Positions 24,870 to 35,324 of a stretch of 35,811 nt of DNA are shown here, piece by piece. Source of the stretch: Actinomycetota bacterium (GTDB lineage Bacteria; Actinomycetota; Actinomycetes; Streptosporangiales; Streptosporangiaceae). The translations under genes and the position numbers were made by a program. The notes under the pieces are model-generated. The model searched no databases and was not told where the DNA came from. It saw nothing but the letters and a program-made list of their open reading frames with translations. The stretch spans positions 1-35,811 of the forward strand of contig JAJPIV010000044.1 in NCBI GenBank assembly GCA_021324595.1, given 5' to 3'. Position 1 is the stretch's first letter, and the number at the start of each line of letters is the position of its first letter.

Positions 24870-25856
24870 TCAGCCCGCTCCCGGCTGGGCCCGGGCATCG
24901 CCGGCGGCGCTGCCGGCGTCCGGGGCGTCGCCGGCGCTGGCGGCGGAGCCAGGAGCGTCGCCGCCACTGGGGCCGGCCCCGGTGGCTGCGCCCGGCCCGG
25001 TGGCTGCGCCCGGCCCGGTGGCTGCGCCGCGGCCCGCGTCAGCGGGCGGCCGGGCGCCGGACGGGTCGGTCGGCTCGGCCACCGCCACCCGGGCCGGGCG
25101 CAGGATCCGGTCGCCGACCCGGTAGCCGGGCAGCAGGATCTGGACGCACGTCGGCTCGGTGACCTCCGCCGAGTAGGAGTGCATCAGGGCCTCGTGGACC
25201 TTCGGGTCGAACGCCTCGCCGGCCTCGCCGAACGCCGTGAGGCCGAGCTTGGCCACCGCCGCCTCCAGCGACTCGGCCACCGACTTGAACCCTCCGGTCA
25301 GCTCGCCGTGCTCGCGGGCCCGGCCGATGTCGTCCAGCACCGGCAGCAGCTCGGCGATCACCGTCGCCAGCGCGTGCTCCCGGACCGCCGCGCGGTCCCG
25401 CTCCACCCGCTTGCGGTAGTTCGCGTACTCGGCCTGGACGCGCTGCAGGTCAGCGGTCCGCTCGGCCAGCGCCACGGCCAGGTCCGGGCTCCCGCCCGGC
25501 TGCCCGTCACCGTTCCGGGGCGGCTGCGCCGGCCCGGCCTGCGGCTCCTGAGGCTGGGCCTGGGCCTCCGGCGGCGCCTCGGGGCCGGGCGCGGCCGGCC
25601 GGGGCTCCCCGGATGGACGCTCCGCCCGCGGGCCGGCCGCCTCCCCGGGCACCGGCCCGGCCGCACCCGGCTGCTCGCCGCGCGCGGCCTCGCCGCGCGG
25701 GCTGCCCGGCTTGGAGACGGCATGCTTGCCCGGCCGCGGGTGGCCGGCCCTGGGCGCCTGGCCGCTCCCTGCGTCCCTGGGCTGGCCGGTGACCGGGTCG
25801 ATGCGCCTGCGGTCCCTGATGACCGGCCCCTGGCCCTGTTCCTGCGACGCCGACAT
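24870..25856 (-). CDS. grpE: Nucleotide exchange factor GrpE with long extensions
   Basis: Releases ADP from DnaK. The conserved core is at about residues 125-265: a coiled coil (LAVALAERTADLQRVQAEYANYRKRVERD) and the beta-wing with VLDDIGRAREHGE, FDPKVHEALMH, VTEPTCVQILLPGYRVGDRILRPARVAVAE. At 328 residues it is well above the usual 180-220, because of a Pro/Gly/Ala-rich N-terminus of about 120 residues and a Gly/Ala C-terminus of about 60 residues. The C-terminal part includes three GAATG-type repeats from an 18-bp DNA repeat. ATG 25856 overlaps the dnaK stop by one base (TGATG), so the two are translationally coupled. Confidence 0.94.
   Translation of the reverse strand: MSASQEQGQGPVIRDRRRIDPVTGQPRDAGSGQAPRAGHPRPGKHAVSKPGSPRGEAARGEQPGAAGPVPGEAAGPRAERPSGEPRPAAPGPEAPPEAQAQPQEPQAGPAQPPRNGDGQPGGSPDLAVALAERTADLQRVQAEYANYRKRVERDRAAVREHALATVIAELLPVLDDIGRAREHGELTGGFKSVAESLEAAVAKLGLTAFGEAGEAFDPKVHEALMHSYSAEVTEPTCVQILLPGYRVGDRILRPARVAVAEPTDPSGARPPADAGRGAATGPGAATGPGAATGAGPSGGDAPGSAASAGDAPDAGSAAGDARAQPGAG
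24981..25029. repeat. 18-bp tandem repeat, about 2.7 copies, inside grpE
   Basis: The unit GGTGGCTGCGCCCGGCCC begins at 24981 and 24999, and a partial third copy begins at 25017. It encodes the Gly-Ala-Ala-Thr-Gly-Pro repeats in the disordered C-terminus of GrpE. A length-variable microsatellite-like repeat in coding sequence; 18 bp keeps the frame. Confidence 0.85.
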
Positions 25857-27718
25857 CAGGCTGAGCCACCTCCCGAGCCAGGCTGGTCATCCTCGATGAT
25901 CTCGGCATCCACCACCTCGTCCTCGGACGGGCCGCCGGACGCGCCGGACGCGCCGGACGCGCCCTGGGCGGCGCCCTCCTGCTGCGCCTGCGCGTAGATC
26001 GCGGTGCCCATCTTCTGGCTGACCTGCGCGGCCTTCTCGGACGCGGCGCGGATCGCGTCGGTGTCGGTGCCCTCGAGCGCCTTCTTCAGGTCGGCGATCG
26101 CTGTGTTGACCTCGGCCTTCACGTCCTCCGGGATCTTGTCCGAGTTCTCGGACAGGAACTTCTCGGTGGTGTAGACGAGCGTCTCGGCGCGGTTGCGGGT
26201 CTCCGCCTCCTCGCGGCGCTTGCGGTCCTCGTTCGCGTACTTCTCCGCGTCCGCCATCATCCGCTCGATCTCCTCCTTGCTCAGCGCCGAGCCGCCGGAG
26301 ATCGTGACGGACTGCTGCCTGCCGGTGCCGAGGTCCTTCGCGGAGACGTTCACGATGCCGTTCGCGTCGATGTCGAAGGTGACCTCGATCTGCGGCACGC
26401 CGCGCGGCGCCGGAGGGATCCCGGTCAGCTCGAACATCCCGAGCTTCTTGTTGTAGGCCGCGATCTCGCGCTCGCCCTGGAAGACCTGGATCTGCACCGA
26501 CGGCTGGTTGTCGTCGGCGGTCGTGAAGATCTCCGAGCGCTTGGTCGGGATCGTCGTGTTCCGCTCGATGAGCTTGGTGAAGATGCCGCCCTTGGTCTCG
26601 ATGCCCAGCGACAGCGGGGTCACGTCCAGCAGCAGGACGTCCTTGACCTCCCCCTTGAGCACGCCGGCCTGCAGGCAGGCGCCCACCGCGACGACCTCGT
26701 CCGGGTTGACGCCCTTGTTCGGTTCCTTGCCGCCGGTCAGCTCCTTGACCAGGTCGACGACCGCGGGCATCCGGGTCGATCCGCCGACCAGCACGACGTG
26801 GTCGATGTCGCTGAGCTTGATCCCGGCGTCCTTGATCACCTGCTGGAACGGCCCCTTGCACCGGTCGAGCAGGTCCGAGGTCATGCGCTGGAACTCCGCG
26901 CGGGTCAGCTTGGCGTCCAGGTGCAGCGGGCCCTGCTCGGAGTGGGTGATGTACGGCAGGTTGATCTGCGACTCGGACGAGGCGGACAGCTCGATCTTGG
27001 TCTTCTCGGCGGTCTCCCGCAGGCGCTGCAGCGCCATCTTGTCCGCGGACAGGTCGATGCCGTAGCTGTTCTTGAAGTTCGTGACCAGCCAGTCGACGAT
27101 GCGCTGGTCCCAGTCGTCGCCGCCGAGGTGGTTGTCGCCGCTGGTCGCCTTCACCTCGACGACGCCCTCGCCGACCTCAAGCAGCGACACGTCGAACGTG
27201 CCCCCGCCGAGGTCGAAGACCAGGATCGTGGCCTCGGTGGCCTTGTCCAGGTGGTAGGCCAGGGCCGCCGACGTCGGCTCGTTGATGATCCGCAGCACGT
27301 TCAGGCCGGCGATCTGCCCGGCTTCCTTGGTGGCCTGCCGCTGGGCGTCGTTGAAGTACGCCGGGACCGTGATGACCGCGTCGGTGACGGTCTCGCCGAG
27401 GTAAGCCTCCGCGTCCCTCTTCAGCTTCTGCAAGATGAAGGCGCTGATCTGCTGCGGGGTGAACTTCTTGCCGTCGATGGTGATCGTCCAGTTGGTGCCC
27501 ATCTGGCGCTTGACCGACCGGATCGTCCGGTCGACGTTGGTCACCGCCTGACGCTTGGCGACCTCGCCGACGAGCACCTCGCCGTTCTTGGCGAACGCGA
27601 CCACGGACGGGGTCGTCCGCGAGCCCTCCGCGTTCGCGATCACCGTGGGCTCGCCGCCCTCCAGAACGGCGACGACGGAGTTGGTCGTCCCCAGGTCAAT
27701 GCCTACCGCTCGTGCCAT
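25856..27718 (-). CDS. dnaK: Chaperone DnaK (Hsp70)
   Basis: The central ATP-dependent chaperone and, in actinobacteria, co-repressor with HspR. At 620 residues: the nucleotide-binding domain begins [16 protein letters not shown], with phosphate-2 and adenosine motifs [16 protein letters not shown] and [19 protein letters not shown]; the linker [16 protein letters not shown] leads into the substrate-binding domain; the C-terminal tail is Gly/Ala-rich and ends in acidic residues ([13 protein letters not shown]). ATG 27718 has AAGGA about 7 nt upstream. The frame is open to 27790, but that stretch lies in the operator region. First gene of dnaK-grpE-dnaJ-hspR-clpB. Confidence 0.98.
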
Positions 27719-27770
27719 GTGTCTGTCCTTGGTGGTCTCAGGCCCTTGAGAGGACGCTGTTCGTGCAAAG

Positions 27771-27791
27771 CTTGAGTCTAGACGACTCAAG
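27771..27791 (-). promoter_or_regulatory. HAIR operator 1 (HspR-binding inverted repeat)
   Basis: A perfect match to the consensus CTTGAGT-N7-ACTCAAG: CTTGAGT at 27771-27777, ACTCAAG at 27785-27791. It lies 53 bp upstream of the dnaK start codon. HspR with DnaK is expected to bind here and repress until heat shock titrates DnaK away. Confidence 0.93.
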
Positions 27792-27996: not shown

Positions 27997-29262
27997 ATGC
28001 AGACCGGCCTGCGGCAGGGCTCGGCGTGCCCGCCGGGAAGCCGGCGTGCCCGCCGGGCCGTCACCCGGTGGCTGGCCGATCCCCAGGTCAGGAGCGCCGC
28101 CGGGCTGTGGCTCGCGTCCAAGGCGATGCTCGCCGTGCTGGCCTGGGCGGCGAGCTGGGTGATGCGCCCGGCCGGGCAGGCCGCCCCCCTCTGGGCGGCG
28201 TGGGAGCACTGGGACGCGGCGCAGTTCCGCCTCATCGCCGAGCGTGGCTACGGCAGGCTGGCGGGCAGCGACCGGATCGCGTTCCTGCCCGGGTTCCCGC
28301 TGCTGCTGCGCGCCGCGCACCTGCTGATCGGCTCGTGGGCCGCCGACGAGCTCGTCGTGACGTCGGCGGCGAGCTTCCTCGCGGTGCTCGGCCTGATCCG
28401 GCTGGCCGACGACTGCCGGCCCGGCTCGGGCACCCGGGCCGCGGTGTTCCTGCTCGCCTCGCCGGCGGCGGTGTTCCTGTCGGTCGGCTACTCCGAGGCC
28501 GCGTTCCTCGCCGCGGCGCTTCCGGCCTGGCGGGCAGCCCGGGCCGGGCGGTGGACCCGGGCGGCGGTGCTGGCCGCCGTCGCCTGCGCGATCCGGGTGA
28601 GCGGGATCTTCGTGCTGGCCGGCCTGGCCGTGCTGGCGGTCCAGGAGGTGACGTCCGGGCTGCCCGCGGCCGCCCGTGATGCGACGAGCCGCAGCCGCGG
28701 CGCCCCGGGGGCCGCCCGGACCGGGCCGCCCGCCGCGGTCCGCCGGCCCGCGGCGGCCAGGTCGCTCGGGCTCGCGGCGCGGCTGGCGATCCCGCTGCTG
28801 CCGCTGGCCGCCTATGAGGCGTACCTGTACCGGGGGACCGGTGACTGGCTCGCCTGGGATCACGCGGAACGGGCGGGCTGGGGACGGTACTTCGGCGATC
28901 CGGTGCGCACGTTCACCACCACCTGGCGGGCCGCGTTCGGGCTGGAGTTCCGGCCACCGCTGGCATTCATGTTCCAGCTGGAGCTGGCGGCGATGGCGGT
29001 GCTCGCCGGCACGGCGGCCTGGCTCGCCTGGCGGCGCCGGTGGGCCGAGGCGGTCTATGCCGCGCTCACCGTGGCCGCATTCGGGTTCGGGACGTGGTAC
29101 GAGTCGGTGCCCCGGGCGCTGCTGCTGATGTGGCCGCTGTGGTGCGGCCTCGCCGGGCTGGCGGGCCGGCGCCGCCTGGCCGGCTGGCTCTGGCTCGCGG
29201 TTTCCGCGCCGCTGATGGTGGTGACCGCGCTGCTGTACCTATCCGGGAGCTGGGCGGGCTGA
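27997..29262 (+). CDS. PIG-V/GPI-mannosyltransferase 2-like membrane protein
   Basis: A 421-residue GT-C-type polytopic membrane protein. The first loop carries WEHWDAAQFRLIAERGYG and the second RIAFLPGFPLLLRAAH, matching the WDxxxF...FxPxxP pattern of the actinobacterial mannosyltransferase family related to PIG-V; the Asp of WD is the likely catalytic residue. About nine or ten membrane helices are visible (for example 35-58, 97-117, 122-136, 148-172, 186-212, 256-276, 325-345, 350-395, 400-418). It probably uses a polyprenyl-phosphate sugar donor on the outer face. GGGAGG precedes ATG 27997 by 7 nt. Divergent from the dnaK operon. The acceptor is unknown. Confidence 0.8.
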   Translation: MQTGLRQGSACPPGSRRARRAVTRWLADPQVRSAAGLWLASKAMLAVLAWAASWVMRPAGQAAPLWAAWEHWDAAQFRLIAERGYGRLAGSDRIAFLPGFPLLLRAAHLLIGSWAADELVVTSAASFLAVLGLIRLADDCRPGSGTRAAVFLLASPAAVFLSVGYSEAAFLAAALPAWRAARAGRWTRAAVLAAVACAIRVSGIFVLAGLAVLAVQEVTSGLPAAARDATSRSRGAPGAARTGPPAAVRRPAAARSLGLAARLAIPLLPLAAYEAYLYRGTGDWLAWDHAERAGWGRYFGDPVRTFTTTWRAAFGLEFRPPLAFMFQLELAAMAVLAGTAAWLAWRRRWAEAVYAALTVAAFGFGTWYESVPRALLLMWPLWCGLAGLAGRRRLAGWLWLAVSAPLMVVTALLYLSGSWAG

Positions 29263-29288: not shown

Positions 29289-29436
29289 TCCCGTGGTCAC
29301 GGCGGGTTGACCACTGCCCACGGACTGTCCTGCCGGGGCGGCCGGCGGGCGGCGGCGCGGGTAGACTCCCGCAGCAGGCGCTGATGACGCCCGCCCGGCG
29401 GTGCGGCCGGCCGGCCGAGGACAGGTGGATGAGCCC

Positions 29437-31482
29437 ATGGCGTCCGATGCCGCGGTGAGCCCCGCCGCCGGGACCAGCGGTCCCGTCCGGGCCGGCCGTC
29501 CCGGTGCCCGCCGCCCGCGGGCGGTCGCCCTCGTGCTGGCCGGGTACGTGGCCGCCGCGTTCGCCGTCACCTGGCACCTGTGGGCCGGCCCGGCCCGGCT
29601 GGCGGTGGCCGGCAACCCCTGGGACGCGGACCTGTTCGCCTGGTACCTGCGCTACACCGCGGCCGCCCTGGCCCACGGCCACCTGCCCGCGCTGATCACG
29701 ACCAGCCTGAACGCGCCGCGGGGCGTCAGCATGATGTGGAACACGGCCGTCCTGCTGCCCGGCATCGTCCTCGCGCCGGTGACCCTGCTCGCCGGCCCGC
29801 AGGCCAGCCTGACGCTGATGCAGACCGCCGGGTTCGCCGGGTCGGCCGCGAGCCTGATGCTCGTGCTGCGGCGCTGGCGGCTGCGCACCGGGCCGGCCGC
29901 GATCGCCGGGGCGGTCTACGGGTTCTCCCCGGCCCTGGTGCAGTCCGCGATCGGCCACTACGACCTGCAGTTCGCCGTCCTCCCGCCGCTGCTCATCGAC
30001 GCCGGGCTGCGCCTGTTCGCCGTCCCGGCGCCCGGGCCGCCCGGCTCGCCGCCGCGGGTGACCCGGCCGGGGCCGGCCCGCGCCGCCCGGACCGGCATCC
30101 TGCTCGGCCTGCTCGCCGCGGCGCAGCTGTTCGTCGCCGAGGAGACCCTGGCGATCAGCGCGGTCACCGGGGCGCTGCTCGGCCTGGGCCTGATCCTGGC
30201 CCGGCCCGCGGGGCTGGTCAGGTGGGCACTTGCAGCGTGCCGGGCGGGCGCGGGCCAGCCCTCCGGGCCCCGGAGGAGGACGGCCGGGAGCCGGCTGGCG
30301 GCTGCGGCCGGCCGGCTGGCGGCGCCCGCCGCCGGAGCGGCCACCGCGTGCGGCGCGTTCCTCGCGGTGGCCGGGATCGCGCTCGCCACGCAGTTCACCG
30401 GACCGCTCGCGCAGCACGGCAGCCCGTTCTACCCCGACTACTACAAGAACGACCTGACGGTCTTCACCGACCCGTCCGGCTACGTGATCTGGCATTCGTC
30501 GGCCAGCGCGTACGCGGCCTCGTGGCTGCCCGGCGGCGCGCCCGAGCAGCTCGGCTACCTCGGCTGGCCGATGATCGCCGTGCTCGCGGCCGGCACGGTC
30601 GCGCTGTGGCGGGACCGCCGCGTGCGGGTGCTCGCCGTCCTGGTCGCCGGGTACGAGCTGCTCTCCCTCGGCGGCCACCCGGAGATCCACGGGGTGACCG
30701 ACCCGCGCGTGACGCTGCCGTGGCACTGGGTGGAGGGCTGGCCGCTGCTCGGGCTGGCCCTGCCCGACCGGCTCTCGATCTTCGCCGACGGGATGGCGGC
30801 CGTCCTGCTCGCCGTGTTCCTCGACCGGACCTCCGCCGGCGGGCCGGCGCGCCCGCTGCCAGAGCCGGCCGGGGGTGCGCCGGCGGCGGCCGGGAGTGCG
30901 GGGCACTTGCGGGTGCCGGCGGCCGGCGGCCGGCCGGCCGCGCCGTGGCTGGGCCTGGCCCGCGCGGCCCTGATCGCGGCGGCCGTGGCGCCGCTGGTCC
31001 CGCTGCCGCTGCCGGCCGCCGCCGTGCCGTCGGTCCCCGCCGGGTGGGCGGCGGCGTTCGCCGCGCTCCGGCTTCCGCCCGCCGCCCGGGTGCTCGCGGT
31101 TCCCGTCCCGAACGCGGGGCTGACGGAGGCGATGCGCTGGCAGGCGACCACGGGGACGGACATCTCCCTGATCGGCGGGTACTTCCTGGGGCCGGCGGCC
31201 GGCGGGCAGGCCTACGTCGACGGGCAGGGATCCCGGCCGACCGCCAACTACCTCGACTGGCTCTGGCTGCGCACGCCCGCGGGGCGCGGCGCCCCGACCG
31301 GGCCGGTGACCCCGGTCGCCAGGCCCTCCCTCCCGGTGGTGCGCGCGGACCTGGCCTGGTGGCGGGCCGCGGCCGTGGTCGCGGACACCACCCCCGGCAC
31401 CGCCCTGGGCCGGTACCTGACGGGAATCCTCGGCCCGCCCGCCGTGACCGCCGGCTCGGTCATGGCCTGGCGGCTGGGCTGA
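29437..31482 (+). CDS. Large polytopic membrane protein, GT-C glycosyltransferase-like
   Basis: A 681-residue membrane protein with a GT-C topology: helix 1 at about 26-48, then a first periplasmic loop with NPWDADLFAWYLRYTAAALAHGHLPALITTSLNAPRG, where the acidic pair (WDAD) sits as in GT-C enzymes. About ten further hydrophobic helices follow, and a C-terminal soluble part from about 565 (LRLPPAARVLAVPVPNAGLTEAMRWQATTGTDISLIGGYF). Similar actinobacterial proteins are annotated only as glycosyltransferase or membrane protein; I cannot name donor or acceptor. Start uncertain: ATG 29437 with AGGTGG 8 nt upstream is preferred, but in-frame GTGs at 29401 and 29425 are possible. Converges on the GH26-like gene. 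Confidence 0.72.
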   Translation: MASDAAVSPAAGTSGPVRAGRPGARRPRAVALVLAGYVAAAFAVTWHLWAGPARLAVAGNPWDADLFAWYLRYTAAALAHGHLPALITTSLNAPRGVSMMWNTAVLLPGIVLAPVTLLAGPQASLTLMQTAGFAGSAASLMLVLRRWRLRTGPAAIAGAVYGFSPALVQSAIGHYDLQFAVLPPLLIDAGLRLFAVPAPGPPGSPPRVTRPGPARAARTGILLGLLAAAQLFVAEETLAISAVTGALLGLGLILARPAGLVRWALAACRAGAGQPSGPRRRTAGSRLAAAAGRLAAPAAGAATACGAFLAVAGIALATQFTGPLAQHGSPFYPDYYKNDLTVFTDPSGYVIWHSSASAYAASWLPGGAPEQLGYLGWPMIAVLAAGTVALWRDRRVRVLAVLVAGYELLSLGGHPEIHGVTDPRVTLPWHWVEGWPLLGLALPDRLSIFADGMAAVLLAVFLDRTSAGGPARPLPEPAGGAPAAAGSAGHLRVPAAGGRPAAPWLGLARAALIAAAVAPLVPLPLPAAAVPSVPAGWAAAFAALRLPPAARVLAVPVPNAGLTEAMRWQATTGTDISLIGGYFLGPAAGGQAYVDGQGSRPTANYLDWLWLRTPAGRGAPTGPVTPVARPSLPVVRADLAWWRAAAVVADTTPGTALGRYLTGILGPPAVTAGSVMAWRLG

Positions 31483-31531: not shown

Positions 31532-32500
31532 TCACCGGTATCCGATCAGCCGCAGGCCCCGGCGGAACGCCGCGATCGCCGCGCGGTGACCCTCGAGCCT
31601 CCAGTCCTGGTGGTAGAGGCTGCCGTGCTGGGCCGTGTCGAACCAGACGAGCCCCAGCAACCGGTCCCGCTTGATCCCGGCGAACAGGCCCGGGATCTCG
31701 CGTGCCTGGCCCGCCACCTGCCCGATCGCCACCTCGGACACAAGTATCGGCCGGCGGGTCACGTGACGCACCGCCGTCACCGTCCGGCCTATCACCGAGG
31801 CGAAGGTGTCGGACCTCGTGAAGTAGTAGCAGTCGATTCCCACCCAGCCCACGTACCTGCTCCCTGGCCACCAGTCGCGCAGCGGCCCGGTGGCCGGGCC
31901 CACCCGGTTGATCGTCCAGATCCAGGTCACGTTGGCGGCGTGCTGGCGGCGGAACAGCGTCACGACATGGCGCCACGCGGCCACCCAGAGGGCGGGCCGG
32001 GTCCGGCGCCAGCCCCACGGGTCCCAGTCCCCGTTCATTTCCGCCGCGAAGCTCAGGAGCACGTGCCAGCCGTAGGCCCTGGCCTGGTCGGCGAAAGCAG
32101 TCAGGTAGTCGTCGAACCTGCCATCAGCGATCGACGCCATGGGGACCTTGCCCGGATTGATCTGTATGAATGGGATGGCCTTGTGCGCGCGGATGGCAAG
32201 AGCGAGGCGAGATGTGAACGGGTCGCCCCAGGCGAGATAGTACAGCACTATATCGGGATTCTTGCCGACCGCCCTGGAGAAGGTCTCGATTGGCCGGTAG
32301 CTCTTCATGGCACCGGACTCGGTGACGCCGAGGTAGGATGCTGCTCGGAGACGGAGGGGCGGAGCGGTCCGACGTGATGCCGTCGTGACAATTCGCGCCG
32401 GCGCCCGGGTTACCGGGCGGGTCGCATACGCGACACTCGCCACGAGCACGAGGAAGGTGGTGGCGAGCAGGACCAGCATCTTGCCTGTCAACCCCATCAT
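31532..32500 (-). CDS. Membrane-anchored GH26-like glycoside hydrolase
   Basis: A 322-residue protein: an N-terminal signal-anchor at about 7-27 (KMLVLLATTFLVLVASVAYA) with no clear cleavage site, a Thr/Arg-rich linker to about 50, then a (beta/alpha)8 glycosidase domain. Clan A features fit family GH26: the acid/base Glu154 in AAEMNGDWDPWG and the nucleophile Glu256 in ILVSEVAIG, with the aromatic WVGIDCYYF strand between. In classical GH26 mannanases a His precedes the acid/base (HEMNG); here it is Ala153. Family members cut beta-1,4-mannan, beta-1,3-xylan or mixed glucans; this one may trim the polymer of its operon partner. ATG 32500 overlaps the GT2 stop (ATGA), with AAGGAGG 6 nt upstream inside the GT2 gene. 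Confidence 0.8.
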   Translation of the reverse strand: MMGLTGKMLVLLATTFLVLVASVAYATRPVTRAPARIVTTASRRTAPPLRLRAASYLGVTESGAMKSYRPIETFSRAVGKNPDIVLYYLAWGDPFTSRLALAIRAHKAIPFIQINPGKVPMASIADGRFDDYLTAFADQARAYGWHVLLSFAAEMNGDWDPWGWRRTRPALWVAAWRHVVTLFRRQHAANVTWIWTINRVGPATGPLRDWWPGSRYVGWVGIDCYYFTRSDTFASVIGRTVTAVRHVTRRPILVSEVAIGQVAGQAREIPGLFAGIKRDRLLGLVWFDTAQHGSLYHQDWRLEGHRAAIAAFRRGLRLIGYR

Positions 32501-34020
32501 GAGGCCTCCTTCACCTGCCTATTGCGCCAGCTCTTGTCGTGCAGCTTGGTCAAAGCGTAGTACCGGAGCGGCAATAGCAGCAGCATGCTCATCAGAGTGG
32601 CCACTGGCGTACCGATGAGCAGGGACTTCGCCTTCTCGCCGAATGGCATGTCGGGGCGTCCGGACAGATAGAGGACGGCCAGCGCGTACTTCACGACGAT
32701 GAAGGACATCACATACGGCAGCGTGACCCAGATGTGCGCTAGCTGATGGTGGAATCCGAAGGTCCACGATGCCAGCGCCCACACGTATAGAAACGGAGCC
32801 GACAGCGCCTGGATGAGCCCGATGGTCGGCGAGATGATGGCGTTCCAGCCCAGCCGCCGGTAGACGAACGGCAACATCCACCACCAGGACCTGGCCCAGC
32901 GCAGGCGCTGGTTGAAGGTACCCCTGATGTCAGATGGCATGTCAGTCTCGACGATCGCCGCGTTGACCCCGATGACCCGTCCCCGCGTGAGCGCCCGCAT
33001 CGTCAGCCAGCGATCGTCGCCGGTGCCGCATTCGACTTCGTAATCAGCCAGGTTGTCATACAGCACGGGCCCCCGGTAGAGGGCGAGCGCGCCGGACGTG
33101 GTCTCCAGCGCGCCGAGCGCGGACCTGGAGGAGCGCATCATGACGCAGGACGCTCCGATGTTCACGTCCGCTGCCCGGGCTATGAGGCTCTCATCATAGT
33201 TCCGGACCCAGATCCAGCCGGTGACGGCTTGGATGGATTGGTCGCTCATCGCCCTCAGGAGATGCTCAAGCGCGTCAGGCCGAGGGGTCGAGTCGCTGTC
33301 GACGGTCAGGACGAAATCGACGTCCGCTGCCCGGAATCCCCGAAGGGCGGTTGCGTGAGCTCCGCGCTTCCCGCGATTAGCCTGTCTGACCCAGTCGACG
33401 CGCGGATGATAGAAGGGAATCACGGGCTCCGCGGACCCGTCGTCCACCACGACTATGCGGTCGAGGGGTACGGTCTGGGCGAGCAGGCTCCGCACGCAGG
33501 CGTGAAGCTTGTCGGTCGGCTCGTTGTAGGCCGGAACGATGGCCAGAACGCGCCCGCTGGCGATGGGTAGATCGCGGTAGCCGCGGCTGTTGGCGTAGGT
33601 GAGCAAGCAGAAGACGATTTCTATCGCGTTGAACGTCCAGTACGCTATGATGACGGTGCTGACAGACAGCCGCGCGGTGATGGCTATCGTCACCGCGAGG
33701 ACGACGAATACCGCCGAGACGATGATGACTTTGAGCGCTCGCGCTCTCGGAAGGTCAGCAGCCGGTAGAGGGCGACTCCAGTCATAGTCGTGATCACGGA
33801 CCCCAAGATGGCGGCGCTGACCAGCCTGGTAACGTCGCTCAGGATAGTGGCGGGCGTTGTCAGGGAAATGGCGCGGGCTGCTGTGCTGATAACGGTGCTC
33901 AGTGCGCGGTGCATGAAGTGACCTGCCGGATTCCGCGGTCGGGACCGCTTCGGCCAGGTAGAGCAGGAGGTCGAGTGCCTGGCTCTGCGAGGCCGGGGTG
34001 GCGTGGTGCAGGCCGGTCAT
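32497..34020 (-). CDS. GT2 processive glycosyltransferase, hyaluronan/cellulose-synthase-like
   Basis: A 507-residue membrane polysaccharide synthase. After two helices (about 97-118, 121-143) the GT2 domain shows VPAYNE (162-167), VVDDGS (191-196), the metal DSDS (241-244), TSGALALYR acceptor segment (308-316), the GTGDDRWLT base-containing motif (332-340) and QRLRWARSWWW (371-381), the QxxRW processivity motif. The arrangement GDDR...TDMP...QRLRWxRSW is closest to class I hyaluronan synthases. Three or four C-terminal helices follow (about 398-425, 430-453, 466-490). It should polymerise and export a chain from UDP-sugars. Start ATG 34020 overlaps the dehydrogenase stop (ATGA). Residues 37-95 look out of frame (see the alternate-frame entry). 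Third-position GC is below that of the core genes. Confidence 0.85.
   Translation of the reverse strand: MTGLHHATPASQSQALDLLLYLAEAVPTAESGRSLHAPRTEHRYQHSSPRHFPDNARHYPERRYQAGQRRHLGVRDHDYDWSRPLPAADLPRARALKVIIVSAVFVVLAVTIAITARLSVSTVIIAYWTFNAIEIVFCLLTYANSRGYRDLPIASGRVLAIVPAYNEPTDKLHACVRSLLAQTVPLDRIVVVDDGSAEPVIPFYHPRVDWVRQANRGKRGAHATALRGFRAADVDFVLTVDSDSTPRPDALEHLLRAMSDQSIQAVTGWIWVRNYDESLIARAADVNIGASCVMMRSSRSALGALETTSGALALYRGPVLYDNLADYEVECGTGDDRWLTMRALTRGRVIGVNAAIVETDMPSDIRGTFNQRLRWARSWWWMLPFVYRRLGWNAIISPTIGLIQALSAPFLYVWALASWTFGFHHQLAHIWVTLPYVMSFIVVKYALAVLYLSGRPDMPFGEKAKSLLIGTPVATLMSMLLLLPLRYYALTKLHDKSWRNRQVKEAS
33690..33914 (-). other. Alternate-frame ORF inside the GT2 N-terminus (74 codons)
   Basis: In another frame, ATG 33914 opens a 74-residue ORF with a plausible amphipathic start and membrane helix (VTRLVSAAILGSVITTMTGV, then ALYRLLTFRERER). 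By hand count its third positions are G/C in 47 of 59 codons (to about 33738), whereas the GT2 frame over the same bases has only about 34 of 59 and reads as an odd His/Arg/Tyr-rich peptide. Flanking GT2 codons are 29 of 35 and about 52 of 62. An AGG lies about 7 nt upstream. This is either a small overlapping membrane-protein gene or the true reading of the synthase after two compensating frameshifts. Confidence 0.45.
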
Positions 34021-35324
34021 AGGCGCTCGCCGGCGGGGAGCACGCCGCGGGTGTCCAGGATCAGCGGCGCGTAGCTGGTCGCGCGCTCGAGGTCGAACAT
34101 GCTGTGGTCCTGGAGCAGCACGGCGAGGTCGGCGAATGCGGTGGCGTAGGCGGCGAGCCGCTCGGCGTTCTCGACGGGTTCCCCGTCGACCAGCCAGTCG
34201 GGCACGTGCGGATCGAGATAGCACAGCCGTGCCCCGGCGCGCCGGAGCAGGCGGGCGAGCGGCACGGCGGGAGTCTCCCGCAGGTCGGCGCTGTCCTTCT
34301 TGTAGGTGACGCCGAGCAGCAGGATCCGGGCGCCGTTGAGCGGCCGGCCGGCCTGGTTCAGCAGCGAGGCGCAACGGGTGAAGACGTAGGAGGGCATCCG
34401 GTTGTTGATCTCGTGGGCGAGGTCAATGAACCGGAACCGATGGCCGAGCGTGCGGACCTTGTAGGACAGGTAGTTCGGATCGATCGGTATGCAGTGGCCG
34501 CCTACACCGGGGCCCGGATAGAAGGCCTGGAAGCCGAACGGCTTCGTGGCCGCGCACCTGATCGCGTCCCAGAGGTCGAGGCCCAGCTCGTGGCTGAGAA
34601 CCGCCATCTCGTTGACCAGCGCGATGTTGACGTGGCGGTAGGTGTTCTCCAGCAGCTTGGCCATTTCCGCCTCGCGGGCGGATGCGGCGGTCACGACCTG
34701 GTCACACAGCCTGCGGAAGAAGGCGGCGGCCACCTCCGTGCAGCGGGGCGTGATCCCGCCCACGATCTTTGGCGTGTTGCGCACGCCGAAGGCTCGGTTG
34801 CCCGGGTCGATCCGCTCTGGCGAGAACGCGAGGTGGAAGTCTAGCCCGGCGCAGAGCCCTGATCCCTTCTCGAGGATTGGCCGCACTACCTCATCTGTGG
34901 TGCCCGGGTAGGTGGTCGACTCGAGTACCACCAGGGCACCTGGCCGCAGCAGCTTCGCGGTCGTGCGCGCTGCCGACCTCACCGCGGTCAGGTCGGGCCC
35001 GCTGTCGGCTGTCAGCGGGGTGGGCACGCAGATCACCGTCACGGCCGGCGTGCCGATGGTAGCGGGGTCGCTGGTGGCCCGGAAGCCGCGTGCCCGCATC
35101 GCCGTCACCTCGGCGTCCGAGATGTCCGGGACGCGGGAGCGCCCATTGTTCAGGCCGGCCACCACCGCCGGGCTCAGGTCGTATCCGGTTACCATCAGCC
35201 CTGACCGGGCGGCCTCAGCCGCCAAGGGCAAGCCCACATAGCCGAGGCCGATCACGAGGAGATCGGGATCCGGATCACCATGCGGCTTGCCGTTCGGCGT
35301 AACTGCGCTCTTCCGGTGGGCCAT
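34017..35324 (-). CDS. UDP-sugar 6-dehydrogenase (UDP-GlcNAc/ManNAc or UDP-Glc dehydrogenase)
   Basis: A 435-residue NAD-dependent enzyme that oxidises C6 of a UDP-hexose twice to a uronic acid. Rossmann motif GLGYVGLP at 26-33; central domain with LAFSPERIDPG (166-175), KLLENTYRHVNIALVNEM (223-240); the catalytic Cys278 in GPGVGGHCIPIDPNYL (271-286); C-terminal domain with LGVTYKKDSADLRETPA. The GVGGHCIPxDP form is typical of the UDP-N-acetylhexosamine dehydrogenases (WbpA/WecC/VipA type) rather than GFGGxCxxKD of UDP-glucose dehydrogenases, so the product is probably a UDP-N-acetylhexosaminuronate. Substrate calls from this motif are not certain. ATG 35324 has GGAAG about 11 nt upstream. 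First gene of a three-gene operon; its TGA overlaps the GT2 ATG. Confidence 0.9.
   Translation of the reverse strand: MAHRKSAVTPNGKPHGDPDPDLLVIGLGYVGLPLAAEAARSGLMVTGYDLSPAVVAGLNNGRSRVPDISDAEVTAMRARGFRATSDPATIGTPAVTVICVPTPLTADSGPDLTAVRSAARTTAKLLRPGALVVLESTTYPGTTDEVVRPILEKGSGLCAGLDFHLAFSPERIDPGNRAFGVRNTPKIVGGITPRCTEVAAAFFRRLCDQVVTAASAREAEMAKLLENTYRHVNIALVNEMAVLSHELGLDLWDAIRCAATKPFGFQAFYPGPGVGGHCIPIDPNYLSYKVRTLGHRFRFIDLAHEINNRMPSYVFTRCASLLNQAGRPLNGARILLLGVTYKKDSADLRETPAVPLARLLRRAGARLCYLDPHVPDWLVDGEPVENAERLAAYATAFADLAVLLQDHSMFDLERATSYAPLILDTRGVLPAGERL

What the first reader, a model, noticed from the sequence alone, without database searches (positions are those of the whole stretch)
31532..35324. 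Compact dehydrogenase-synthase-glycosidase operon: a candidate new exopolysaccharide system
Three genes on one strand are joined by ATGA overlaps at both junctions: a UDP-sugar 6-dehydrogenase, a hyaluronan-synthase-like GT2 and a signal-anchored GH26-like hydrolase. Established systems pair a processive GT2 with a uronic-acid-forming dehydrogenase (HasA/HasB) or with a polymer-trimming hydrolase (BcsA/BcsZ, and PslG in the Psl system). This locus has both functions in three genes, with a GH26-type enzyme in the hydrolase slot. I infer a minimal synthase-dependent pathway for an unknown uronic-acid polymer.
Basis: partly seen in the sequence, partly recalled or inferred. Interest (0 to 1): 0.75.

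Follow-up and report, generated by a model that had tools for sequence, protein, structure and literature searches.

The report
Acidic polysaccharide synthase operon with hydrolase
Three overlapping genes of an actinobacterium look like a small factory that makes, exports and trims an unknown acidic sugar chain; each part is of a known kind, but this combination, and the wider pairing of this hydrolase family with sugar-chain synthases, has not been described as far as I could find.

Summary
The trio is real: minus-strand genes for a nucleotide-sugar dehydrogenase (DH), a hyaluronan-synthase-like GT2 and a GH26 hydrolase, joined by 4-base overlaps. The same order with two 4-base overlaps occurs in one further genome (G074). 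A third locus keeps only a DH remnant before GT2-GH26 (L078), a fourth, in another family, has GT2-GH26-DH with a UDP-glucose-type DH and another GT2 subfamily (L226). Wider patterns: a DH-GT2 pair without GH26 in 20 of 20 Streptomyces loci retrieved; a GT2 directly upstream of at least 45 of 75 GH26 genes of this clade. The GT2 model matches hyaluronan synthases best (Z 33.8), but three acceptor-pocket residues differ. The window DH carries most of the residue signature of UDP-N-acetylhexosamine 6-dehydrogenases, not that of HasB. The GH26 is closest to lichenase CtLic26A, with both catalytic glutamates. Best reading: a minimal synthase-dependent pathway for an acidic polymer, probably with an N-acetylhexosaminuronic acid, cut outside the membrane by GH26. 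Reader partly supported; a new variant of a known kind; polymer untested.

The parts
34017..35324 (-). nucleotide-sugar 6-dehydrogenase, 435 aa, UDP-N-acetylhexosamine type; catalytic Cys278 in GPGVGGHC
   Evidence: Pfam and NCBIfam, PDB relatives, group-specific residues with E. coli WecC and Ugd as controls
32497..34020 (-). hyaluronan-synthase-like GT2, 507 aa (ATG at 34020)
   Evidence: Pfam, PDB profile hits to HAS, AlphaFold2 model and structural match to HAS
33751..34020 (-). N-terminal extension of the GT2 (residues 1-90), predicted disordered; present in window and G074, absent from the eight closer Streptomyces rows aligned
31532..32500 (-). GH26 hydrolase, 322 aa, N-terminal hydrophobic segment (residues about 8-26), catalytic Glu154 and Glu256
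34017..34020 (-). 4-base ATGA overlap, dehydrogenase stop / GT2 start
   Evidence: GTGA at the same junction in G074
32497..32500 (-). 4-base ATGA overlap, GT2 stop / GH26 start (alternative start ATG at 32497)
   Evidence: GTGA in G074
32505..32511 (-). AAGGAGG, Shine-Dalgarno-like, before the GH26 start
   Evidence: read directly

Best explanation
The trio is a minimal synthase-dependent pathway for an acidic polysaccharide. Step 1 (inferred from residue signature): the dehydrogenase oxidises C6 of a UDP-N-acetylhexosamine, most likely UDP-GlcNAc, to UDP-HexNAcA. Step 2 (inferred from fold and motifs): the GT2 polymerises this sugar, alone or alternating with a second UDP-sugar such as UDP-GlcNAc, through beta linkages and pushes the chain through its own membrane channel as hyaluronan synthase does. 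Step 3 (inferred from homology and position): the GH26, exported or anchored by its N-terminal segment, cuts the emerging chain, setting its length or releasing it. Shown here: gene identities, overlaps, recurrence of the trio in a second genome, folds (as models), catalytic residues, the GT2-GH26 linkage over the clade. Not shown: activity, polymer, linkage, localisation.
For: Same trio with two 4-base overlaps in G074; window and G074 are sister rows in the DH tree (99/99) and the GH26 tree (98/90). GT2: a profile of 20 rows finds HAS first in the PDB (E 6e-43 and 1e-38); the model matches Chlorella virus HAS at Z 33.8 over 360 residues, 2.6 A, above chitin and cellulose synthases; GDDR, Q, R and W of QxxRW and gating-loop W and R invariant in the 20 rows. 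DH directly upstream of the GT2 in 20 of 20 Streptomyces loci and 5 of 5 Mycobacterium/Mycolicibacterium/Smaragdicoccus loci. A second, independently built DH + GT2 + GH26 locus with a UDP-glucose-type DH (L226) and a DH remnant in front of a third GT2-GH26 pair (L078). DH: 6 of 9 UDPNAMDH-group residues identical, Ile (an allowed alternative) at a seventh, and Glu at index 355; E. coli WecC and Ugd behave as expected in the same alignment (group residues from passages of PMC4794789). GH26: GT2 directly upstream in at least 45 of 75 clade genes, against 3 of 75 downstream and 2 of 75 on the other strand; Glu154 in 75 of 75, Glu256 in 74 of 75.
Against: The intact ordered trio is in only 2 genomes found. 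A 53% identical GT2 in another class (L116/L136) has no DH or GH26 nearby; a Thermoleophilia contig (L143) has none in the 10 kb upstream that is held. In the 16 of 20 Streptomyces loci measured, DH and GT2 are 191-488 bases apart on the starts I used; 45 and 9 bases in two Mycolicibacterium loci. DHs 58-65% identical on plasmid-collection records are not beside a GT2 and the two closest branch nearer to the window DH than the Streptomyces paired DHs do (85/87), so the pairing may have arisen twice. Two group residues of the UDP-HexNAc enzymes (indices 391, 418) and the N-acetyl-contacting Arg 393 are not kept. A UDP-Glc dehydrogenase model (AglM) scores 159 bits and CalS8, recalled as acting on a glucose nucleotide, 180 bits; no equivalog model reaches its cut-off. 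GH26 enzymes in the PDB list are titled mannanase, xylanase or lichenase, none for a uronic polymer.
Confidence: 0.63

Rival explanations
1. The GT2 makes a neutral beta-glycan (chitin-like or mixed-linkage glucan-like) that the lichenase-like GH26 trims, and the dehydrogenase feeds a different glycan that is only co-regulated.
For: GH26 nearest to the lichenase CtLic26A in sequence and structure; GT2 without linked DH in L116/L136; 43 of 45 GT2-GH26 loci of the clade have no intact DH on the same strand within 4.5 kb; NodC is the best NCBIfam hit, 120 bits, far under its 550 cut-off.
Against: DH beside the GT2 in 26 of 41 loci retrieved with it, a double overlap kept in two genera, and a DH of another type in L226. 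HAS, not chitin or cellulose synthase, is the nearest structure.
Confidence: 0.17
2. The GT2 is not a polymerase: it adds one or a few sugars to a lipid or protein acceptor.
For: PcManGT, titled a mannosyltransferase, ranks next after HAS (Z 28.1); a PMT_2-like gene lies near 29 of 45 GT2-GH26 pairs of the clade.
Against: HAS-like membrane part and gating-loop W and R, plus QxxRW and GDDR; a glycosidase partner would have no obvious chain to cut. No PMT gene in this trio.
Confidence: 0.1
3. The product is ordinary hyaluronan, or a GlcA/Glc polymer like the type 3 pneumococcal capsule.
For: HAS-like GT2 with a dehydrogenase partner; the Arg near GlcA in XlHAS1 (R296) is kept.
Against: Dehydrogenase has most of the UDP-HexNAc signature; XlHAS1 Y288, F292 and C307 correspond to I288, C292 and T307 here (mapped by hand; roles from passages of PMC11750622).
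Confidence: 0.06
4. The GH26 is an unrelated scavenging enzyme that happens to sit behind the GT2.
For: 28 of 75 clade GH26 genes have no GT2 upstream by my rule.
Against: Strand- and side-specific linkage (45 of 75 against 3 and 2 of 75) in a genome with 14 such GT2 genes per 4.09 Mb; overlap at this junction in both trios.
Confidence: 0.04

Closest known systems
Class I hyaluronan synthase operons (HasA/HasB; Chlorella virus and Xenopus HAS structures)
   Same: GT2 fold, channel helices, GDDR, QxxRW, gating-loop W and R; co-encoded sugar dehydrogenase
   Different: three acceptor-pocket residues differ; dehydrogenase of UDP-HexNAc type; a glycosidase is added (none in has operons, recalled)
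Bcs/Ccs/Pga/Alg systems with a hydrolase or lyase (BcsZ GH8, CcsZ, PgaB, AlgL)
   Same: synthase and polymer-cutting enzyme in one locus (titles and abstract starts)
   Different: hydrolase family is GH26; no PilZ or BcsB-like domain in the three proteins or the two neighbours by Pfam
CtLic26A, GH26 lichenase of Clostridium thermocellum
   Same: best sequence and structural match; both catalytic Glu
   Different: about 25% identity; Ala instead of His before the acid/base Glu; specificity unknown
Actinoplanes missouriensis wps-1 cluster (WpsE, GH26), PMC13390465
   Same: an actinomycete exopolysaccharide cluster with a GT2 and a GH26 gene
   Different: 11 genes, with Wzx/Wzy-type parts; the authors say no Wzx/Wzy cluster with a GH26 had been characterised (passages)
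PMT_2-GT2-GH26 cassettes of the same family, and acyltransferase-GT2-GH26-DH in L226 (seen here)
   Same: GT2 directly followed by a GH26
   Different: other GT2 subfamilies; PMT_2 gene instead of DH, or DH of UDP-glucose type placed last

Membership tests
Class I hyaluronan synthase | HAS fold including membrane channel | tested here: met
   Z 33.8, 360 residues, 2.6 A to 8snc; model pLDDT 78.6, residues 1-88 mostly under 50
Class I hyaluronan synthase | GDDR and QxxRW motifs | tested here: met
   G334-R337 and Q371-W375
Class I hyaluronan synthase | gating loop WGTSGRK/R (WGTRG in the Chlorella virus enzyme) | tested here: inconclusive
   W498 and R501 invariant in 20 rows, but WRNR in the window; WGTR in L139-L142, L144-L147 and L149, 24-37% identical; motif
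Class I hyaluronan synthase | acceptor collar Y288, F292, C307 (XlHAS1 numbers) | tested here: not met
   I288, C292, T307, by hand from the profile alignment; W382, S385, D342, R343 are kept
Class I hyaluronan synthase | makes a GlcA-GlcNAc polymer | not testable with these tools
   no activity data
UDP-N-acetylhexosamine 6-dehydrogenase group (UDPNAMDH) | group residues E215, R259, P262, R359, V407, H410; common residue E355 | tested here: met
   E135, R171, P174, R230, V274, H277; E226 (indices from PMC4794789)
UDP-N-acetylhexosamine 6-dehydrogenase group (UDPNAMDH) | V414 (Leu or Ile in 4 of 38) and F418 | tested here: inconclusive
   I282 and Y285
UDP-N-acetylhexosamine 6-dehydrogenase group (UDPNAMDH) | H391 and the N-acetyl-contacting R393 of the UDP-ManNAc enzymes | tested here: not met
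   TKPFGF in place of the HPR segment of Cap5O and WecC, so not filed as a UDP-ManNAc dehydrogenase. TKPFGF is recalled as typical of WbpA-like UDP-GlcNAc 6-dehydrogenases, not checked
UDP-glucose 6-dehydrogenase (HasB/TuaD/Ugd) | L359, A355, K215 and Lys at 414 | tested here: not met
   R230, E226, E135, I282; E. coli Ugd and the L226 DH show the UDP-Glc pattern in the same alignment; TuaD model 98 bits for the window DH, 368 for the L226 DH
GH26 | Pfam PF02156 over cut-off, TIM barrel, two catalytic Glu | tested here: met
   32.2 bits against 20.2; Z 29.6 to CtLic26A; E154, E256 (that they are the catalytic pair is recalled, read from the alignment)
GH26 lichenase | activity on beta-1,3;1,4-glucan | not testable with these tools
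   nearest solved relative only
Synthase-dependent exopolysaccharide system with hydrolase | co-encoded extracytoplasmic polymer-cutting enzyme | tested here: inconclusive
   hydrophobic N-terminal segment, mean hydropathy 2.3 over 19 residues, possible AYA cleavage site in the window protein; export and cutting not shown

The most novel reading that the evidence does not exclude
Actinomycetes hold an undescribed class of exopolysaccharide systems defined by a GT2 synthase followed by a dedicated GH26 hydrolase, whose further gene (UDP-HexNAc or UDP-Glc dehydrogenase, PMT_2 glycosyltransferase or none) decides the polymer; the window trio is an acidic branch that makes an N-acetylhexosaminuronic acid polymer by a hyaluronan-synthase-like mechanism.
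Probability: 0.38. Interest if true: 0.72.

Novelty: new variant of a known kind. Interest (0 to 1): 0.5.

Why it matters
If right, three genes suffice to make, export and trim a new acidic polymer, easy to test by expression in laboratory strains. It gives a function-linked home to a GH26 clade that is abundant in one actinobacterial family (7 matches in the window's own genome) and makes one question testable: what GH26 enzymes that sit behind synthases cut. It also shows a HAS-like enzyme paired with a UDP-HexNAc-type dehydrogenase.

Tried and rejected
HasB-type UDP-glucose dehydrogenase: rejected on group residues. True hyaluronan: disfavoured by pocket residues and dehydrogenase type. The trio as a widely conserved operon: not found; 341 family genomes, 396 sampled phylum genomes and one scan of genome contigs gave one further intact ordered trio. 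These searches are limited: searches scored 3 or 4 candidates a genome, one search used two short peptide patterns, and loci reach at most 10 kb from the GT2, less at contig ends. Plasmid-collection DH relatives as further trios: 4 looked at (L193-L196), no GT2 or GH26 within 6 kb by my seeds. Rfam on L116 gave nothing. The promoter and terminator scan found none, 0.7 and 1.2 expected by chance. Papers: searches; their listings show no DH-GT2-GH26 or GT2-GH26 module, in a library without most subscription journals and without bioRxiv. I saw passages of PMC13390465, PMC4794789, PMC11750622, PMC12987647 and PMC10374906; other papers as listings only.

Limits of my counts: GT2 seeds for one search were picked from GH26 loci, so unlike GT2s are missed; some GH26 genes counted as without GT2 (for example in L098 and L179) have one that my coordinate rule dropped. 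The 75 GH26 genes come from the P0003 hits of about 100 bits and over in 150 family genomes, all of which I fetched, re-scored at 90 bits. Gene calls in relatives were my own ORF heuristics. Pfam was run on chosen proteins only. GH26 model: 4 sequences, mean pLDDT 71, five models 52-71.

Full report
Anatomy. The contig (G000:C129, 35,811 bases, of a 4.09 Mb assembly in 168 contigs) carries at its end three minus-strand genes: a 435-aa nucleotide-sugar dehydrogenase (DH), a 507-aa GT2 and a 322-aa GH26. Both junctions are ATGA overlaps; at the second an alternative ATG three bases on has the better Shine-Dalgarno spacing. The next genes downstream are convergent: a 693-aa protein without Pfam hit (29401-31482 +) and a PIG-V-like protein (27997-29262 +). 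Neither neighbour gave a Wzx or Wzy match; the contig ends just upstream of the trio.

The trio elsewhere. A profile of the GT2 found 10 of 341 genomes of the family at E 1e-45; only the window's and G074 exceed 50% identity, and 0 of the 4 other held genomes of the genus had it. G074 (L065; the same contig in genome contigs, L121, is titled a Nocardiopsis soil MAG) has DH 70%, GT2 52% and GH26 56% identical by local alignment, in the same order, with GTGA overlaps at both junctions. In trees the G074 DH and GH26 are sister rows of the window's. Among 396 genomes drawn from the phylum only G354, of another class, gave a further hit: 53% identical, no DH or GH26 in the 20 kb fetched. A scan of genome contigs gave 41 loci: L121; 16 Streptomyces at 53-55%; 4 Streptomyces at 39-40%; G354's contig again (L136) and one Thermoleophilia contig (L143), both without DH; 5 Mycobacterium, Mycolicibacterium or Smaragdicoccus loci at 28-32%; L148 without DH; and 12 distant hits without DH. 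A DH lies directly upstream in 26 of 41 (L121, the 20 Streptomyces, those 5), a GH26 in 1 of 41. In Smaragdicoccus the pair is followed by a polysaccharide deacetylase (PF01522, 63 bits). The DH tree leaves open whether the window's pair and the Streptomyces pair have one origin.

Two more loci with all three kinds. In L078 (G017) only short pieces of a DH, residues 21-42 (86% identical) and 346-429 (36%), lie directly before a GT2d-GH26 pair: a decayed DH or an assembly fault. In L226 (G966, another family of the class) the order is acyltransferase (Acyl_transf_3 with SGNH), GT2, GH26 (41.6 bits in Pfam), DH on one strand; this DH has the UDP-glucose residue pattern and scores 368 bits with TuaD, and this GT2, nearest to the GT2e seed (28%), carries QQLRW and WGTR. 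So a uronic-acid-type dehydrogenase has joined GT2-GH26 pairs more than once, with different DH types and GT2 subfamilies. L227 (G849) has acyltransferase-GT2-GH26 without DH.

GT2 and GH26. P0003 matched 117 of 150 family genomes at E 1e-3, mostly weakly. I fetched the surroundings of the places of about 100 bits and over. Of 75 GH26 genes with 90 bits or more, in 27 genomes, 45 (24 genomes) have a GT2 directly upstream on the same strand within 1.5 kb, 28 have none by this rule and 2 lie at a contig edge; a GT2 lies downstream in 3 and on the other strand in 2. The window's genome has 14 GT2 genes of this Pfam family at E 1e-3 (15 matches, two in one open frame, one under the cut-off), so by my arithmetic chance would give well under 1%. 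The partners fall to seven seed subfamilies: 30 GT2b, 6 GT2d, 3 GT2c, 2 GT2a (window and G074), 2 GT2g, 1 GT2e, 1 GT2f; 29 of the 45 also have a PMT_2-like gene on the same strand within 4.5 kb, 2 an intact DH. Outside the family, of the 29 loci, 7 have GH26 of 115 bits or more and 5 of these have GT2b upstream (L197-L200, L203; not L201, L202); of the 22 weaker ones 4 have a GT2 upstream (L215, L217, L223, L225). The GH26 tree tends to group by GT2 partner, with partner changes.

What each protein is. GT2: a profile search of the PDB puts Xenopus HAS1 (E 6e-43) and Chlorella virus HAS (E 1e-38) first; the AlphaFold2 model (mean pLDDT 78.6, pTM 0.77) matches HAS at Z 30-34, PcManGT 28.1, yeast Chs1 26.7, BcsA 25.5. 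Of the XlHAS1 residues around the acceptor sugar (passages of PMC11750622), W382, S385, D342 and R343 are kept, Y288, F292 and C307 are I, C and T here; of the two Arg near GlcA, R296 is kept and R287 is N (my reading of the alignment). DH: nucleotide sugar dehydrogenase (406 bits), then UDP-ManNAc models (263, 234), TviB 209, AglM (UDP-Glc) 159, TuaD (UDP-Glc) 98; no equivalog model reaches its cut-off. In the PDB the first relatives are a UDP-ManNAcA dehydrogenase (4r16, 222 bits) and Cap5O (209), then 3g79 (183), CalS8 (180) and a UDP-glucose dehydrogenase (128). Six of nine group residues place it with UDP-HexNAc dehydrogenases, while H391 and R393 of the UDP-ManNAc enzymes are missing. 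UDP-GlcNAc as substrate is inference, resting partly on a recalled likeness to WbpA. GH26: CtLic26A is nearest in sequence (E 4e-26) and structure (Z 29.6, against 23.6 for AlXyn26A and 22.5 for the best mannanase); the residue before the acid/base Glu is Ala in the window, G074 and one more of 75, His in 60, Pro in 12, so substrate may differ within the clade.

Mechanism and verdict. The parts fit DH making a UDP-uronic sugar, GT2 polymerising and extruding, and GH26 cutting outside. Gene identities, recurrence of the trio, model folds, catalytic residues and linkage are shown; substrate, polymer, linkage and export are inferred. The larger finding is the GT2-GH26 linkage, of which I saw no description; the nearest is the A. 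missouriensis wps-1 cluster (PMC13390465, passages), whose authors remark that no Wzx/Wzy gene cluster involving a GH26 enzyme had been characterised.

Noticed in passing
window 26798-27772 (+): An ORF antisense to a DnaK-like gene (25856-27790, -; named from its sequence, no call) scores 254 bits against Pfam PF10712 'NAD-GH'; this looks like a family built on antisense of dnaK.
   Followed up: no
L086, L087, L098, L099: PMT_2-GT2b-GH26 cassettes occur in tandem copies, up to three on one stretch (L087).
   Followed up: partly
L197-L200, L203: GT2b-GH26 cassettes, some with a PMT-like gene, also lie outside the window's family.
   Followed up: partly
L226 7049-13476 (-): Acyltransferase-GT2-GH26-DH locus with a UDP-glucose-type dehydrogenase in another family.
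   Followed up: partly
L078 11579-11829 (+): Remnant of a dehydrogenase gene directly before a GT2d-GH26 pair.
   Followed up: partly
L079 4826-6010 (-): UDP-glucose-type dehydrogenase on the opposite strand between GH26 genes.
   Followed up: no
L144 11293-12873: The Smaragdicoccus DH-GT2 pair is followed by a polysaccharide deacetylase, a different enzyme in the third slot.
   Followed up: partly
window 33751-34020 and L121 7957-8211: The GT2 has a basic N-terminal extension of about 90 residues with lower GC at third positions (0.68 against 0.84 and 0.92) in both trios, predicted disordered in the window.
   Followed up: partly
L116 9222-10532: GT2 53% identical to the window's, without DH or GH26 nearby, in a 1.7 Mb genome of another class.
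   Followed up: partly
L065 5527-6471 and 10442-11362 (-): Two more GH26 genes flank the G074 trio, both on the opposite strand.
   Followed up: no
L193, L194, L195: Dehydrogenases 60-65% identical to P0001 on a Streptomyces and a Streptantibioticus megaplasmid and in Nonomuraea, without GT2 or GH26 nearby.
   Followed up: partly
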